Shown one piece after another: positions 1 through 41,014 of a DNA stretch of 64,000 nt. The stretch lies in NCBI RefSeq assembly GCF_014023275.1, contig NZ_CP054698.1, positions 2,604,001 through 2,668,000 of the forward strand, read 5' to 3'. The number at the start of each line of letters is the position of its first letter. Positions within the stretch are counted from its first letter, which is position 1. Origin of the DNA: Nostoc edaphicum CCNP1411 (GTDB taxonomy: Bacteria; Cyanobacteriota; Cyanobacteriia; Cyanobacteriales; Nostocaceae). Position numbers and translations under genes: made by a program. The notes under the pieces were generated by a model. That model did not search any database and was not told where the DNA came from. It saw only the letters and a program-made list of their open reading frames with translations.

Positions 1-539
1 CGATCGCTATTGGCATAACCCCGATACAGTTGGAACAGTCGGCCAAATCCAACGTTTTTCAGTCCTACTTGACTTTTAAAGCCTCGATAGTAGGGGACAA
101 TGTTCTCGCCAAAACTTTCTTGATATTCTAGTGAGTCAATGTAGGAATTAATCTCAGCTTCATAACCTTCTGAGTTGTAAAGCTCAACATGGTACGAAAT
201 CTCTGACTCATCTTCCGGGGCACGCCCCAATAAATGCTTATAATTCAACTCGATAAACCGAGTTTGGGAATTGGAGTGGAAAAACTTATCCCGATAGAGT
301 TCCGATTGAGCAATAGCTTGCACAAATCCCCGGACGGAGATTGCACCTTGCTGCAACAGTGATTCTGCACTCTCTAGACGTTCTCCTTCTAGTAGATATG
401 CATTACCCAAAACCTGACGGTAAGCCGCTCGGATAACCACTGCCACATCCGCTTCTGTTCTATCGGGACGTAGTTCTACCAGTGCTGAGTTTTCAAATGC
501 TCCAATCCCTAATCTTGCTGCTTGTCCCAAAGCCGCCAT
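1..539 (-). CDS. cpcC: Phycobilisome rod linker polypeptide (CpcC type), C-terminal part outside window
   Basis: This is a rod linker that attaches phycocyanin hexamers to each other in the phycobilisome. About 179 residues are visible, running off the left edge. They cover most of a phycobilisome linker (PBS_linker_poly) domain, with family blocks such as [12 protein letters not shown], a VPYYRGF stretch and LYRGYANSD near the edge. The ATG at 537-539 follows a strong GAGGAGG ribosome-binding site. It is the third gene of a cpcB-cpcA-linker operon, separated from cpcA by a stem-loop. In the visible part the only sulfur residue is the initiator methionine, matching the sulfur depletion of the two upstream proteins. 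Assignment as a phycocyanin linker, not a phycoerythrocyanin linker, rests on operon position and similarity recalled from the family. Confidence 0.9.
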
Positions 540-627
540 CCTTAACCTCCTCAGTTTTAACTGCAAAACTGAAAACTTTTTAGAAAATTTTTTTCTAGTC
601 TTTTAACAGTCTTTTGAAAATAAAACT

Positions 628-689
628 GCCCGGAGAAGTAAACAACTCATAGAACTTACTTGTCATAAGAGCTGATTTCCTCTCCGGGC
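628..689 (-). terminator. Intercistronic stem-loop between cpcA and the linker gene
   Basis: GCCCGGAGA and TCTCCGGGC arms flank a loop of roughly 40 nt, and on the transcribed strand the second arm is followed by a T-rich run. Similar hairpins between cpcBA and linker genes are known to lower linker transcript relative to subunits, by partial termination or by stabilising the upstream mRNA. That role is inferred here from position and structure. Confidence 0.6.
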
Positions 690-701
690 TAAAGAAACAC
701 T

Positions 702-1193
702 CTAGCTTAGAGTATTGATTACATAGTCGATGTAAGAATTGGCTTCAACAGCTGGGTCGCCGCTTAGACCGTGGTTAGCTTTGATGTACTTGAGAGCTTC
801 AATGTACCAGCTAGGAGACAGGTCAAAAGTCCGGTTGATTTCAGCCAAGCCAGAAATCAAGAAATCATCCAAGGGGCCTGTGCCACCAACAACTAAAGCG
901 TATGTGATAATCCGCAAGTAGTAGCCAACATCACGAACACACTTGCCTTTGCCGCGTGCATCAGACGCGAAGTTGGGGCCTTGTTGTTGGGTGGTGTAAG
1001 GGAATTTGTTATACACTGCTTGAGCAGCACCTTCGGTCAAACGTTGAGCATTAGCGCTCAATGCTTTTGCTGCTTGTAAGCTAGCTGGTGCTTGGCGGAA
1101 GCGACCAAAAGCAACTTGAATTTCGGTGCTGCTGAGGTAGCGACCTTGAGAATCTGCTGATGCAATTGCTTCAGTTAGAGGTGTTTTTGTCAT
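702..1193 (-). CDS. cpcA: C-phycocyanin alpha subunit, sulfur-depleted variant
   Basis: Alpha subunit of the light-harvesting biliprotein phycocyanin, 163 residues, binding one phycocyanobilin through the cysteine in GKCVRD (residue 85 counting Met). The start chosen is ATG 1191-1193 (MTKTPLTEA), the conserved family N-terminus; the longer frame upstream has no family match. Apart from the initiator Met and the bilin-binding Cys there is no Met or Cys. Positions usually occupied by Met or Cys carry other residues (TTQQQG for [15 protein letters not shown] for YYLRMVTYC, GPLDD for GPMDE). This is the hallmark of the cpc3 phycocyanin made by Calothrix PCC 7601 under sulfur starvation. It is co-transcribed behind cpcB with about a 100-nt gap. 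Confidence 0.95.
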
Positions 1194-1290
1194 TTTTGGT
1201 ATTTCCCTTTTACAAACGTTATGGTTGAAATTTTGTTTTGTCCTATGGATGGACAATTATTTAGTCAACATTCAGCAATGCAAGCTTTGC

Positions 1291-1812
1291 TTAAGCAACA
1301 GCAGCAGCAGCACGATCAAAATAGCTAGCTATTTCAGATGCCAAAGCACTGCAATCGCCTCTGGTGATGTTGTTTGTGTCGTTAACAATTGCCAAAGAAG
1401 CTGCTTTCAGCTTTTGAATACCAACAGCAACTGAAGCTCCTGGGGTTCCCAATGCTAAGTAGGTTTCACGCAAGCCATTGAGGGCGCGGTCATCTAGCAC
1501 GCTGGAATCGCCAGCAAAGATAGCGTAGGTGATATAGCGAAGAATGATGTCCAAGTCTCTGATACAAGCAGCTGCACGACGGCTGGTGTAAGCATTACCA
1601 CCGGGAGTGATCAATTGGGGTTGTTCTGCCCACAAATCACGAGCCGCAGCAGCAACAAGAGCTGATGCATTGCTGGTAATACGGTTAACAGCATCTGCAC
1701 GCTTGTTACCATCTTTGACTAGTTCGCTCAATGCATCCAATTGTGCATCGGAGAGATATTCCCCACGTGTATCAGCTTGGGAAACTACTTTTGCAAATGC
1801 ATCTAAAACCAT
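1291..1812 (-). CDS. cpcB: C-phycocyanin beta subunit, sulfur-depleted variant
   Basis: Beta subunit of phycocyanin, 173 residues, first gene of the operon. The two chromophore cysteines are present at 83 (AACIRD) and 154 (GDCSALASE), equivalent to Cys82 and Cys153. The non-chromophore cysteine found near position 109 in ordinary CpcB (DRCLNG) is alanine here (DRALNG), and there is no methionine other than the first. The start ATG is preceded by AGGAGA at normal spacing. The conserved [17 protein letters not shown] block and C-terminal [10 protein letters not shown] identify the family. Regulation by sulfur supply is inferred from the composition and the known cpc3 precedent; no operator was identified. 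Confidence 0.95.
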
Positions 1813-2520
1813 TGCGTTAAATCTCCTAATTTGCTCGGTTAAGAATAATTGGACTCAAAACTGAATGGTTCAGTTTATTTTTCGATGTCAGCACTGCCTG
1901 ACGAGTTACGAAAGGTCTAAAACAGACATCCAACGGAATAAGTTTACGATCTCCAGGCTTTCAGATTAAAACTTTTGTTAGAAAACTTCAAACTTCTGCG
2001 AACGACTGGAAAACCTGATTAAGATGTTGTTTTTTACTTCCAAGTTCTCTTTATACAATGCTGCCGCATCATTATTTATTACAAATTATTGTTATGTTTG
2101 TTAATCTGATTTACATAAGTTAACACTTTGTCTCTTTAGTTTATGAGACGTTAGTACCGCATGACAAAAATCACTCTCCAGTTTTAAAAAAGCTAAAAAG
2201 CTAATGAAATAGGCAGTATTCTTCTGCTTCCTGCCGCGACCAGATGGGTCTTGGGTTTAAGACCCCCACCAAATTAAAAATTTGGTTGCTTTTATTCAAG
2301 AGGGGTCTGAATCCCCAACTGAGGTAAGACCTTCTGCCTCCTGCCTCCTGCCTCCTAACTCCTAACTCCTTCAACGGAAATCCCTTAAAGAATGCGTAGA
2401 CGTAGCCCACCGCAGGCATCGCAATCTAAATTTGTGTAATATTAGCTACTTCTAGCTTCTGCCAAGGTCACTGCAACCGCAGATTCATCGCCAGAGTCAA
2501 CAATGCGATCGTACAATTAC
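1813..2520. other. Upstream region of the cpc operon with dispersed repeats
   Basis: About 700 bp without a credible gene. The part near 1813-2160 is AT-rich and should hold the cpc promoter, though no box can be placed with confidence. Further left-to-right it carries common cyanobacterial repeats: tandem CCTCCTG/CCTAACT STRR units at about 2333-2370, a palindromic GTAGACGTAGCCCACCGCAG block at about 2395-2425 (relatives near 26170 and 39645), and a TCTGAATCCCC block at 2307-2317 (relative near 54870). A 72-codon frame across these repeats is not treated as a gene. Confidence 0.6.
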
Positions 2521-2850
2521 CTAATCGAATTTATCTTGCAGAAACGCTATGATTCAATACGCTTGGGTTAAGGGCTAATAGTACAAAATTGAAATTGTGG
2601 GTTTTCAAGACGCGATAAATCGCCGTCTCTACAAGTGTTTTGGTCTTATCTGAACTATATTGCGCTATGATTCGCTTAAATGCTTGGGTATCTTGGTAAA
2701 GAAAGCGATGACCACCCTTAAAGAACTCTAAATACGCATCTGGTATTTTTTTATACATTTTCTCAAGATTAGCAGGAGAAGACATACCATCGTAACGACC
2801 ACCGCAGACATAAACGGGAAGATGCATCCGAGAAAGTCGATTATACGTAT
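2521..2850 (-). pseudogene. Alpha/beta hydrolase C-terminal remnant interrupted by a small element
   Basis: The readable peptide LPVYVCGGRYDGMSSPANLE, then FFKGGHRFLYQD, is the C-terminal third of an alpha/beta hydrolase, including the acid (GRYDG) and histidine (GGHRF) of the catalytic set. Nothing of the N-terminal two thirds with the nucleophile elbow is found upstream. The reading continues into a 108-bp insertion (2555-2662). Removing that insertion and one copy of its 10-bp duplication restores a sensible end, KRIIAFLQDKFD followed by TAG at 2521-2523. This is a dead fragment broken at both ends. Confidence 0.7.
2555..2662. mobile_element. CAATAC-family miniature element, copy 1, with 10-bp target duplication
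   Basis: A 108-bp segment bounded by CAATAC... and ...TATTG lies between direct repeats CGCTATGATT at 2545-2554 and 2663-2672. Its core contains the palindromic GACGCGATAAATCGCCGTC, which recurs at 13586-13689 and, in part, near 45395. It has no coding capacity, so movement would need a transposase supplied elsewhere. Confidence 0.75.
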
Positions 2851-2898: not shown

Positions 2899-3918
2899 CT
2901 AATTCCTGCCAAACACACTGCCAAGGGCGCGTGCCATATTTTGCGGTTGCATTGCATCCATTGCGGCGGTGGGTTCGTAGCCGCAGTGAACCATACAATC
3001 GGCACACTTGGGATTACCACTCTTCTGGCCGTATTGACTCCAGTCAGTTTGTGCCAGTAATTCCTTGAAGGTAGAGTAATAACCTTCGTTCAGCAGATAG
3101 CAAGGTTTTTGCCAACCGAGAACGCTATAACTAGGGCTACCCCAAGGCGTACATTCGTAGTCCTTCTCGCCAGTGAGAAAATCTAGGAACAGCGGATTGT
3201 GATTGAAGTTCCAGTTTTTCTCACCACTTTTGTATGGAGCCAGAATTTCTCGGAAGAGGGCGCGGGTTTGTTCACGGTGGAGAAAATGATCTTGATCTGG
3301 TGCCCACTCGTAACTATAGCCGGGAGAAATCATCATCCCGTCAGTATTTAGTGTTTCCAGAAAGTTGAAGAACTCTTGCATATCTTGGGGTTTAGTCCCC
3401 TCAAATATAGTGGTGTTAGTTGTAACACGAAAGCCTTTAGCTTTAGCGGCGCGAATGGCTTTGACAGCAATATCAAAAACACCTTGGCGATCGACACACT
3501 GATCATGCAACTCCCGCATTCCATCTAAATGCACACTAAAAGTTAGATAAGGGGAAGGTTGAAACTTATCTAGACTCTTTTCTAACAGCAAACCATTGGT
3601 ACACAAGTAAATATATTTCTTGCGCTCAATTAATCCCTGAACAATCTCATCAATCTGGGGATGTAGCAGAGGTTCTCCCCCAGGAATTGAGACAACCGGT
3701 GCGCCGCACTCTTCCACTGCGGCAAAGCACTGTTCTGGGGTGAGATTTTGCTTTAAAATTTCCTTTGGATGTTGGATTTTACCACAACCCGTACAAGCTA
3801 GATTACACCGAAAAAGAGGTTCCAACATCAATACTAAGGGGAAGCGTTTACGTCCTTTCAAACGCTGCGTAACAAGATACTTCCCGATATCCATAGCTTG
3901 TTGTAGATTAACTGCCAT
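2899..3918 (-). CDS. hpnH: Adenosyl-hopene transferase, radical SAM protein HpnH
   Basis: HpnH joins a 5'-deoxyadenosyl group to diploptene, the first step of C35 hopanoid side-chain synthesis. The 339-residue protein has the radical SAM cluster motif CNLACTGC (Cys38, 42, 45), the GGEPL motif at 80-84, and a C-terminal cysteine cluster (CADCMVHC) typical of the family. Length matches known HpnH. The downstream neighbour is a hydrolase remnant. The upstream genes hpnA and an RND transporter are on the same strand, and an HpnG-like phosphorylase for the next step lies at 8097. A 42-bp gap to hpnA suggests co-transcription. Confidence 0.93.
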
Positions 3919-39946: not shown

Positions 39947-41014
39947 TTATTTACGTTTTGGTGGAATCCCCCAAATCTTGATTTGTTGATCAAAACCACC
40001 ACTGGCAAGAATTTTACCATTTGGACTAAAAGCGATCGCACTTACCCAGTCTGTATGTCCACTTAGTGTATTTACCAACTCGCCTGTAGTTAAATTCCAC
40101 AATTTAATCCCATCCCTGCCAGCACTAGCAAGGGTTTCTCCATCAGGGTTAATGGCGATCGCATTTACCCAGTTATTATGTCCTGTGAGGGTGCGGACTA
40201 TTTCTCCAGTATTAATATTCCACAGTTTGACTGTGCGATCGCGGCTTGCACTAACTAATGTTTGTCCATCTGGTGTAAAGATTACAGCGCTCACACCATT
40301 AGAATGAGCTGGCAATTCACTAACTAATTGACCAGTACTCAAATTCCACAGCTTGATTACACCCTTATTATCACCACTAGCCAAGGTCTGTCCATCTGGA
40401 CTAATAGCTAGGGTATAAATCAAATTATCAAAGCGTACTAGAGTTCCTAGAGGGCGTTGCTGTAGCAAATCCCATATACGAATCCCATCCAAAGCTCCAC
40501 TAATGAGAACTTTACTATCAGGAGACACCGCTAAAGATAAGACGTTACTGGTATGTCCGACAAAAGAGCGGCTAAATTTAAAATTTTTCAGGCTCCAGAG
40601 GTTAATCGTGTTGTCATTACTACAGCTAACAAGGGTTTGACCATCTGGCGAAATAACTAAAGATTCTACAGATGTTTTGTGTGCTTTGTTAATATCCGCC
40701 AACTTTTTGCCGTTTGCGGAATTCCAGAGGCGAATTATACCCTCGTTTTCTGCACCTCCACTCACAAGTATTCTGCTATCTGGACTAAAAGCGAGGGATT
40801 TAACGGTTCCTTTATGTCCTCTAAGTGTGTAAAGTAGTTGGGCATTACCAAAGCTGCTGGTAGCTTGGGAATTTGGCGTTACTTCAACGGCAGCATGAGC
40901 TTGATGAATGTAAAACCCTTCCCAGGTAATCACTGGAAGGGCAACAGCTGCCATAAATGCCAGGATAATATACGGACGCAGAAAACTACCCCCACCTCTT
41001 CCCTCACTACTCAC
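39947..41014 (-). CDS. WD40-repeat protein with N-terminal membrane anchor
   Basis: 355 residues. A membrane helix or uncleaved signal (about 12-32) is followed by seven WD40 units forming one complete propeller (about 65-352). Each unit has the form GH...V..LAFSPDG..L.SG..D..I.LW. No enzymatic domain is fused. It is likely an exported or membrane-tethered interaction platform. Confidence 0.88.
   Translation of the reverse strand: MSSEGRGGGSFLRPYIILAFMAAVALPVITWEGFYIHQAHAAVEVTPNSQATSSFGNAQLLYTLRGHKGTVKSLAFSPDSRILVSGGAENEGIIRLWNSANGKKLADINKAHKTSVESLVISPDGQTLVSCSNDNTINLWSLKNFKFSRSFVGHTSNVLSLAVSPDSKVLISGALDGIRIWDLLQQRPLGTLVRFDNLIYTLAISPDGQTLASGDNKGVIKLWNLSTGQLVSELPAHSNGVSAVIFTPDGQTLVSASRDRTVKLWNINTGEIVRTLTGHNNWVNAIAINPDGETLASAGRDGIKLWNLTTGELVNTLSGHTDWVSAIAFSPNGKILASGGFDQQIKIWGIPPKRK

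What the first reader, a model, noticed from the sequence alone, without database searches (positions are those of the whole stretch)
1..1812. Phycocyanin operon purged of sulfur amino acids (cpc3-like)
Directly visible: CpcB (173 aa) has one Met (initiator) and only the two bilin cysteines; CpcA (163 aa) has one Met and only the bilin cysteine; the visible 179 residues of the linker have one Met and no Cys. Positions that are Met or Cys in ordinary phycocyanin are replaced, including the conserved Cys109 of CpcB. Known precedent: the cpc3 operon of Calothrix PCC 7601, expressed in sulfur starvation. Inference: this is a sulfur-sparing second phycocyanin and the genome holds another, sulfur-rich cpc operon.
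Basis: partly seen in the sequence, partly recalled or inferred. Interest (0 to 1): 0.72.

Follow-up and report, generated by a model that had tools for sequence, protein, structure and literature searches.

The report
Nostoc's only phycocyanin is sulfur-poor
The single blue light-harvesting protein of this Nostoc, and its red one too, have lost nearly every sulfur amino acid not needed to hold pigment, so what is known elsewhere as an emergency sulfur-saving spare looks here like the permanent equipment.

Summary
CpcB has no internal Met and only two bilin Cys; CpcA no internal Met and one Cys. But the genome, Nostoc edaphicum CCNP1411, shows one cpcBA, this one, and one cpcE, in the same operon. 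In its genus 32 of 35 genomes with this CpcB type show no other CpcB; outside, 25 of 25 genomes with a read Met-free CpcB had at least two. The operon sits where relatives keep a partly purged phycocyanin. Phycoerythrin beta is purged too (23 of 23 read: 0-1 internal Met, 4 Cys), as is ApcA (13 of 13); RbcL and AtpD are lowered much less. A 93%-identical, Met-free phycocyanin was purified from BG11-grown Nostoc R76DM (6JPR). Best reading: a constitutively sulfur-poor housekeeping phycobilisome, not a conditional cpc3. Whether cpcB was purged in place or came from a cpc3 copy is unresolved. Sulfur economy as the cause is inferred; no expression was measured here.

The parts
1291..1812 (-). cpcB, phycocyanin beta, 173 aa, no internal Met, Cys only at the two bilin sites, starts Met-Val
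   Evidence: NCBIfam TIGR01339 above cut-off
702..1193 (-). cpcA, phycocyanin alpha, 163 aa, no internal Met, one Cys, starts Met-Thr
   Evidence: NCBIfam TIGR01338 above cut-off
1..542 (-). first rod linker (cpcC-like), 180 of its 270 aa lie in the window; one Met, no Cys over the full length
   Evidence: no NCBIfam cut-off reached, weak resemblance to CpcG rod-core linkers only
1813..2530 (-). stretch upstream of cpcB without a clear gene; presumably holds the operon's promoter and leader (not analysed)
   Evidence: inference
2899..3918 (-). radical SAM protein (HpnH-like by its domains; the name is recalled), used here as a neighbour marker of the locus
   Evidence: PF04055, PF11946; found upstream of cpcB in 17 of 24 A-type and 9 of 15 B-type loci

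Best explanation
This is the housekeeping and only phycocyanin operon of the strain (cpcB-cpcA-linker-linker-cpcD-cpcE-cpcF), and its structural proteins have been stripped of every Met and Cys not used for initiation or bilin attachment. The same stripping has reached phycoerythrin beta and allophycocyanin alpha, and partly the core linker ApcE, so the antenna as a whole carries less sulfur all the time. It works like the conditional cpc3 of Calothrix 7601 (same light harvesting, less sulfur per protein) but without a switch: no sulfur-rich alternative is left to switch from. Shown by sequence: composition, single copy, locus, spread to PE and ApcA. Inferred: constitutive expression (from a relative), sulfur economy as the selective cause, removal of the initiator Met by methionine aminopeptidase after a small residue gained at position 2.
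For: One CpcB in the own genome, one CpcE, in this operon. In the genus search 53 genomes, 52 with a CpcB: 35 with the Met-free type by identity (93-100%), of which 32 have no second CpcB; 17 with an 80-84% type, all single. Of the 35, six were read in the named set or singly for sequence in addition to 24 named A-type loci, which are 24 of 24 CpcB 0 Met/2 Cys and 24 of 24 CpcA 0 Met/1 Cys. Outside, 25 of 29 genomes examined had a read Met-free CpcB, 25 of these 25 had at least two CpcB, and in 22 of 25 I read the sulfur-rich copy (4-7 internal Met). Linkers, cpcD, cpcE and cpcF follow cpcBA in 24 of 24 A and 15 of 15 B loci. CpeB 23 of 23 read in the A group with 0-1 internal Met and 4 Cys, against 2-5 Met and 5-10 Cys in 9 CpeB-like rows from eight outside loci, and 116 of the 120 listed database clusters (of 1,556) with at least 2 Met and 5 Cys. 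ApcA 0 internal Met in 13 of 13 A genomes against 1-5 in 10 outside. Nostoc sp. R76DM phycocyanin, 159 of 171 (beta) and 152 of 161 (alpha) identical, no internal Met, three Cys, was purified from BG11 cultures.
Against: No expression data for this strain; BG11 as sulfate-replete is recalled, and R76DM has no genome here, so it might hold another phycocyanin. 3 of 35 A-type genomes do keep an extra, 70-71% identical CpcB (one read, sulfur-rich, L170). Control proteins are also somewhat lower in the A group: RbcL 15.5 against 17.9 and AtpD 8.1 against 10.6 Met+Cys on average, so part of the effect is not confined to the antenna, and none of these tests corrects for kinship. ApcB is hardly changed (3.4 against 4.2), CpeA overlaps with outsiders. 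The nearest outside relative, L050's genome, has a Met-free CpcB with a sulfur-rich PE (5 Met, 6 Cys), so the parts were not purged together. The strain comes from the brackish Baltic, where sulfate should be ample (recalled).
Confidence: 0.72

Rival explanations
1. A conditional, sulfur-starvation phycocyanin (true cpc3), with another cpc operon for normal growth.
For: Composition; in CpcB-only and in the widest concatenated tree the A-type groups with the Met-free copies of Calothrix, Scytonema and Brasilonema type.
Against: No second cpcBA in the genome; the only cpcE is in this operon; 32 of 35 A-type genomes have a single CpcB; purified from BG11-grown cells in a relative.
Confidence: 0.04
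2. Promotion of the spare: the cpcB (or cpcBA) of a cpc3-type copy replaced the old genes inside the vertically inherited operon, and the sulfur-rich version was lost. Mechanism today is the same as in the best explanation; only the history differs.
For: CpcB alone puts the A-type with the cpc3-like clade, also with all Met/Cys columns removed (0.943 and 0.946), and so does the widest concatenated tree (0.966). In CpcB 14 positions unite A with C against B, 8 unite A with B.
Against: CpcA alone and the concatenation group A with B (0.64-0.95); CpcA positions 16 for A-B against 10 for A-C; linkers, cpcD-F and neighbours are the same locus as in B. The same replacements arose in a separately placed group (L078, L083, G153; support 0.995 beside a sulfur-richer sister), so convergence is real. 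The AU test rejects neither history in any of four data sets (5,000 replicates, which the program calls too few; the weaker RELL and ELW measures disfavour A+B for CpcB and A+C for CpcA).
Confidence: 0.35
3. The purge is selected for something other than sulfur saving: resistance of the antenna to oxidation, or spectral tuning. R76DM phycocyanin is blue-shifted by about 10 nm.
For: Met and Cys are the most oxidisable residues (recalled). The R76DM paper finds 12 substitutions and a blue shift and never uses the words sulfur, methionine or cysteine; 11 of the 12 occur in the window proteins.
Against: Surface exposure was not tested. Precedent ties the same change to sulfate (Mazel and Marliere 1989, title only seen; Gutu 2011, title only seen). 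CpcE of the same operon keeps 3 internal Met and 4 Cys, as a rare enzyme would under economy but not obviously under oxidation.
Confidence: 0.2
4. Drift or general composition bias of the genome.
For: RbcL and AtpD also run slightly lower in sulfur in the A group.
Against: Purged positions are otherwise nearly invariant Met or Cys; the same replacements recur in separate lineages; neighbours in the window average 2.4% Met plus Cys.
Confidence: 0.05

Closest known systems
cpc3 operon (cpcB3A3H3I3D3) of Calothrix / Fremyella / Tolypothrix PCC 7601, sulfur-depleted phycocyanin (Mazel and Marliere 1989; Gutu et al. 2011; both seen as citations only)
   Same: Phycocyanin subunits and linkers without internal Met and non-bilin Cys; two linkers and a cpcD follow (operon content of cpc3 is recalled).
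   Different: Here the only cpc operon, with cpcE and cpcF attached, in a genome whose PE and ApcA are purged as well; no sulfur-rich partner.
Phycocyanin of Nostoc sp. R76DM, PDB 6JPR (PMC6614406; parts 1-2 of 4 of the text and search passages read)
   Same: 93-94% identical, no internal Met, three Cys, 11 of its 12 listed substitutions shared.
   Different: The deposited chain B starts Met-Leu, without the extra Val of the window protein. The authors read the changes as spectral and structural and speak of an unnamed extra evolutionary pressure; sulfur is not mentioned.
cpc3-like copies in Calothrix, Scytonema, Brasilonema, Stenomitos, Microcystis and others
   Same: CpcB without internal Met, same replacements at 80, 87, 110 and 135.
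   Different: All 25 such genomes with a read Met-free copy hold at least one more CpcB. In 10 loci with both linkers no cpcE followed on the same strand within the stretch held.

Membership tests
C-phycocyanin beta / alpha (TIGR01339 / TIGR01338) | score above the curated cut-off | tested here: met
   289.6 against 279.3 bits; 301.5 against 269.45 bits
C-phycocyanin beta / alpha (TIGR01339 / TIGR01338) | bilin cysteines alpha-84, beta-82, beta-153 | tested here: met
   Cys kept at own positions 85 (CpcA), 83 and 154 (CpcB), invariant in all groups
Sulfur-depleted conditional phycocyanin (Calothrix cpc3) | no internal Met, Cys only at bilin sites, in CpcB and CpcA | tested here: met
Sulfur-depleted conditional phycocyanin (Calothrix cpc3) | a sulfur-rich cpcBA in the same genome | tested here: not met
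   no second cpcBA
Sulfur-depleted conditional phycocyanin (Calothrix cpc3) | operon of cpcBA, two linkers and cpcD, without bilin lyase genes (definition recalled) | tested here: not met
   two linkers and cpcD present, but cpcE and cpcF follow
Sulfur-depleted conditional phycocyanin (Calothrix cpc3) | expressed in sulfur limitation, silent otherwise | not testable with these tools
   no expression data; a relative's Met-free phycocyanin was purified from BG11 cells
Sulfur-depleted conditional phycocyanin (Calothrix cpc3) | common descent of its cpcBA with cpc3 | tested here: inconclusive
   gene trees disagree, AU test rejects neither history

The most novel reading that the evidence does not exclude
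A whole clade of Nostoc has made elemental sparing permanent: the single housekeeping phycocyanin, phycoerythrin beta, allophycocyanin alpha and, in part, ApcE are purged together over time, with Met lost before Cys109, an extra small residue gained after the start codon so that even the initiator Met can be cut off and reused, and the blue shift of Nostoc phycocyanin arising as a side effect. The fixed state arose more than once (A-type; the G153 lineage, whose sole CpcB and apparently its PE are purged; G176), so the conditional spare and the permanent state are two ends of one evolutionary path.
Probability: 0.5. Interest if true: 0.72.

Novelty: new variant of a known kind. Interest (0 to 1): 0.6.

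Why it matters
Sulfur sparing in antennas is taught as an emergency response with a dedicated spare operon. If it is the permanent state in a large and well-studied group of Nostoc, then these strains should differ from other cyanobacteria in sulfur quota, in their response to sulfate limitation and perhaps in symbiosis. The comparative series (sulfur-rich, 2-3 Met, Met-free with Cys109 kept, fully purged) makes the order and structural cost of the change testable. It also offers a reason for the substitutions and blue shift that were reported in R76DM phycocyanin without one.

Tried and rejected
Rejected: a missed second cpcBA (second genome search with a sulfur-rich query). Rejected as evidence: the binomial chance test alone. 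Tried without result: iqtree bootstraps of several data sets in one script (timed out, nothing printed), replaced by FastTree and an AU test, which left the origin open. Tried: reading the two founding papers (not held). Literature on constitutive purging or on sulfur-poor phycoerythrin: searches listed none that I recognised from title and abstract, but only listings were seen and most subscription papers are not held, so this is not proof of novelty. The methionine-aminopeptidase idea: purged CpcA rows start Met-small in 56 of 69, others in 2 of 50; purged CpcB rows 54 of 54, others 18 of 62 (rows partly duplicated and related). It is not exclusive: CpcB with 2-4 internal Met from sole-copy genomes often start Met-Thr or Met-Ala, PE subunit CpeA starts Met-Lys, and the 6JPR chain starts Met-Leu. 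Dropped before counts: L099 and L100 from the group comparison; G041 lacks ApcE; 14 of 53 single-CpcB genomes outside the genus had no place listed and were not read; G062's presumed Met-free CpcB was cut off by its locus end and is not counted.

Full report
What is there. The left end of the window holds, on the - strand, cpcB (1291-1812), cpcA (702-1193) and two thirds of a rod linker (1-542). The operon goes on beyond the window: a 270-aa and a 289-aa linker, CpcD (85 aa), CpcE (281 aa) and CpcF (241 aa), chromosome 2600641-2605812 of contig C6. The genome matches Nostoc edaphicum CCNP1411 in chromosome length (7,733,505) and total length (8,316,316) (and 7 against passages of PMC7551626). 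Beyond the start, CpcB and CpcA have no Met and only bilin Cys; both linkers have one Met and no Cys. The catalytic CpcE keeps 3 internal Met and 4 Cys, CpcD 2 internal Met; CpcF has neither beyond the start.

Is there another phycocyanin? Searching the own genome with this CpcB gives itself, then CpeB at 56% and allophycocyanin-type proteins. Searching with a sulfur-rich CpcB gives the same. CpcE has a single match, itself. So the inference of a second, sulfur-rich cpc operon fails.

How general is it? In the genus, 53 genomes were searched and 52 gave a CpcB at E <= 1e-40. 35 have the 93-100% identical type (call it A), 17 a type 80-84% identical (B), one (85% complete) none. 32 of 35 A and 17 of 17 B have no second CpcB; three A genomes have one at 70-71%. 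The named set overlaps with this one: 23 of 24 A genomes single, 15 of 15 B genomes single. Reading them: A CpcB 24 of 24 with 0 internal Met and 2 Cys, CpcA 24 of 24 with 0 and 1; B CpcB 12 with 2 and 3 with 3 internal Met, all with 3 Cys. In contrast, of 29 named genomes outside, 25 had a Met-free CpcB that I read; 25 of these 25 have at least two CpcB matches, and in 22 the other copy was read and is rich (4-7 internal Met). As a wider control, 147 genomes of the family were searched: 53 outside the genus have one CpcB; 39 were read (38, L050's); 5 of 39 are Met-free (G127, G153, G157, G158, G176), of which G127, G157 and G158 are close to the A type; 34 have 2-7 internal Met. A sole Met-free phycocyanin is thus uncommon and mostly a feature of this group.

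Same locus as the ordinary operon. Both linkers, cpcD, cpcE and cpcF follow cpcBA in 24 of 24 A and 15 of 15 B loci, and the radical SAM gene lies upstream in 17 and 9 of them; linkers are 85-93% identical between the window and B, against 65-72% in the cpc3-like loci (link1). In ten cpc3-like loci with both linkers no cpcE follows on the same strand. L078 and L083 are an exception of another kind: their Met-free pair is followed by cpcE while a richer copy sits elsewhere.

The rest of the antenna. CpeB of the A group: 14 with 1 and 9 with 0 internal Met, all 23 with 4 Cys; three B genomes with PE: 0-1 Met, 4 Cys; nine CpeB-like rows from eight outside loci: 2-5 Met, 5-10 Cys. Of 120 listed database clusters (best of 1,556) 4 have at most 1 internal Met and 4 Cys; those with a named source are Nostoc. 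CpeA is less distinct: 0-2 internal Met in A, 0-2 outside. ApcA has 0 internal Met in 13 of 13 A genomes, 0-2 in B, 1-5 in 10 outside; ApcE totals 8-12 Met+Cys against 12-22; ApcB 3.4 against 4.2 on average. Controls: RbcL 15.5 against 17.9 and AtpD 8.1 against 10.6. They are lower too, and the naive tests call this significant (0.004 and 0.0006), so a weak trend reaches beyond the antenna; none of these tests corrects for kinship. Two A genomes of the named set and three of 35 in the genus search showed no CpeB.

Is it made in ordinary cells? The closest solved structure is 6JPR, phycocyanin of Nostoc sp. R76DM: 159 of 171 and 152 of 161 residues identical, no internal Met, three Cys. The paper says the strain was cultivated in BG11 (passage), which I recall as sulfate-replete. 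Its Table 1 lists 12 substitutions; five are losses of Met or Cys (alpha C98A; beta M79A, M86L, C109A, M134L), and the authors describe F60W, A56V and L83I as compensating two of them. Eleven of the 12 occur in the window proteins. The paper suggests an additional evolutionary pressure without naming one; the words sulfur, methionine and cysteine do not occur in its main text. Sulfur economy is a candidate for that pressure (inference).

History. Replacements recur: M80A, M87L and M135L in A, in the cpc3-like group, in Microcystis and in L078/L083; Cys110 is kept in L050 and L078/L083 after all Met are gone, and lost in A, cpc3-like and Microcystis. L078, L083 and G153 form a group (1.0) beside a copy with 4 internal Met (0.995), and G176 stands among copies with 3-4, so Met-free CpcB arose at least three times on that tree. 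Whether the A type shares its purge with cpc3 is not settled: CpcB alone and the widest concatenation say yes, CpcA alone and the smaller concatenation group A with B, the bootstrapped tree gives A+B+cpc3 70, and the AU test rejects neither. L050's genome is a counter-case: Met-free CpcB, PE with 5 Met and 6 Cys, and a fragment of another CpcB.

Possible last step. Met-free CpcA begins Met-Thr or Met-Ser where sulfur-rich CpcA begins Met-Lys, one residue shorter; CpcB begins Met-Val against Met-Leu or Met-Phe. Methionine aminopeptidase removes Met before small residues (established knowledge), so the mature purged proteins could be wholly Met-free. The association is strong in counts but the rows are related and partly duplicated, and intermediates show it too.

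Verdict. A true and well-placed observation; a conditional cpc3 is unlikely here. The better reading is a permanently sulfur-poor phycobilisome in the N. punctiforme-like clade. Composition, copy number and locus are shown; constitutive expression and the selective cause are inferred.

Noticed in passing
L170 (G009, Desmonostoc muscorum FACHB-395) and two further genomes, G084 and G094: Three A-type genomes carry an extra CpcB about 70% identical; the one read is sulfur-rich (5 internal Met, 3 Cys) with a divergent CpcA. Its role is unknown.
   Followed up: partly
L293 (G153) and P0071: A second lineage whose only CpcB is Met-free (Cys109 kept) and whose CpeB, by matching contig length, has 1 internal Met and 3 Cys.
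   Followed up: partly
L304 (G176): A sole CpcB with no internal Met and 2 Cys inside a group with 3-4 Met: a third Met-free lineage.
   Followed up: partly
window 39947-41014, - strand: WD40-repeat protein with one Met or Cys in 335 residues when started at its ATG, the poorest in sulfur among the window's other ORFs.
   Followed up: no
own genome C6:6506110-6506739 (L025): A 209-aa protein with a phycobilisome domain upstream of the rod-linker genes of another cluster; role not determined.
   Followed up: no
own genome C6:6360418-6360927 (L023): A second ApcB-family protein, 169 aa, with no internal Met and one Cys; not compared with relatives.
   Followed up: no
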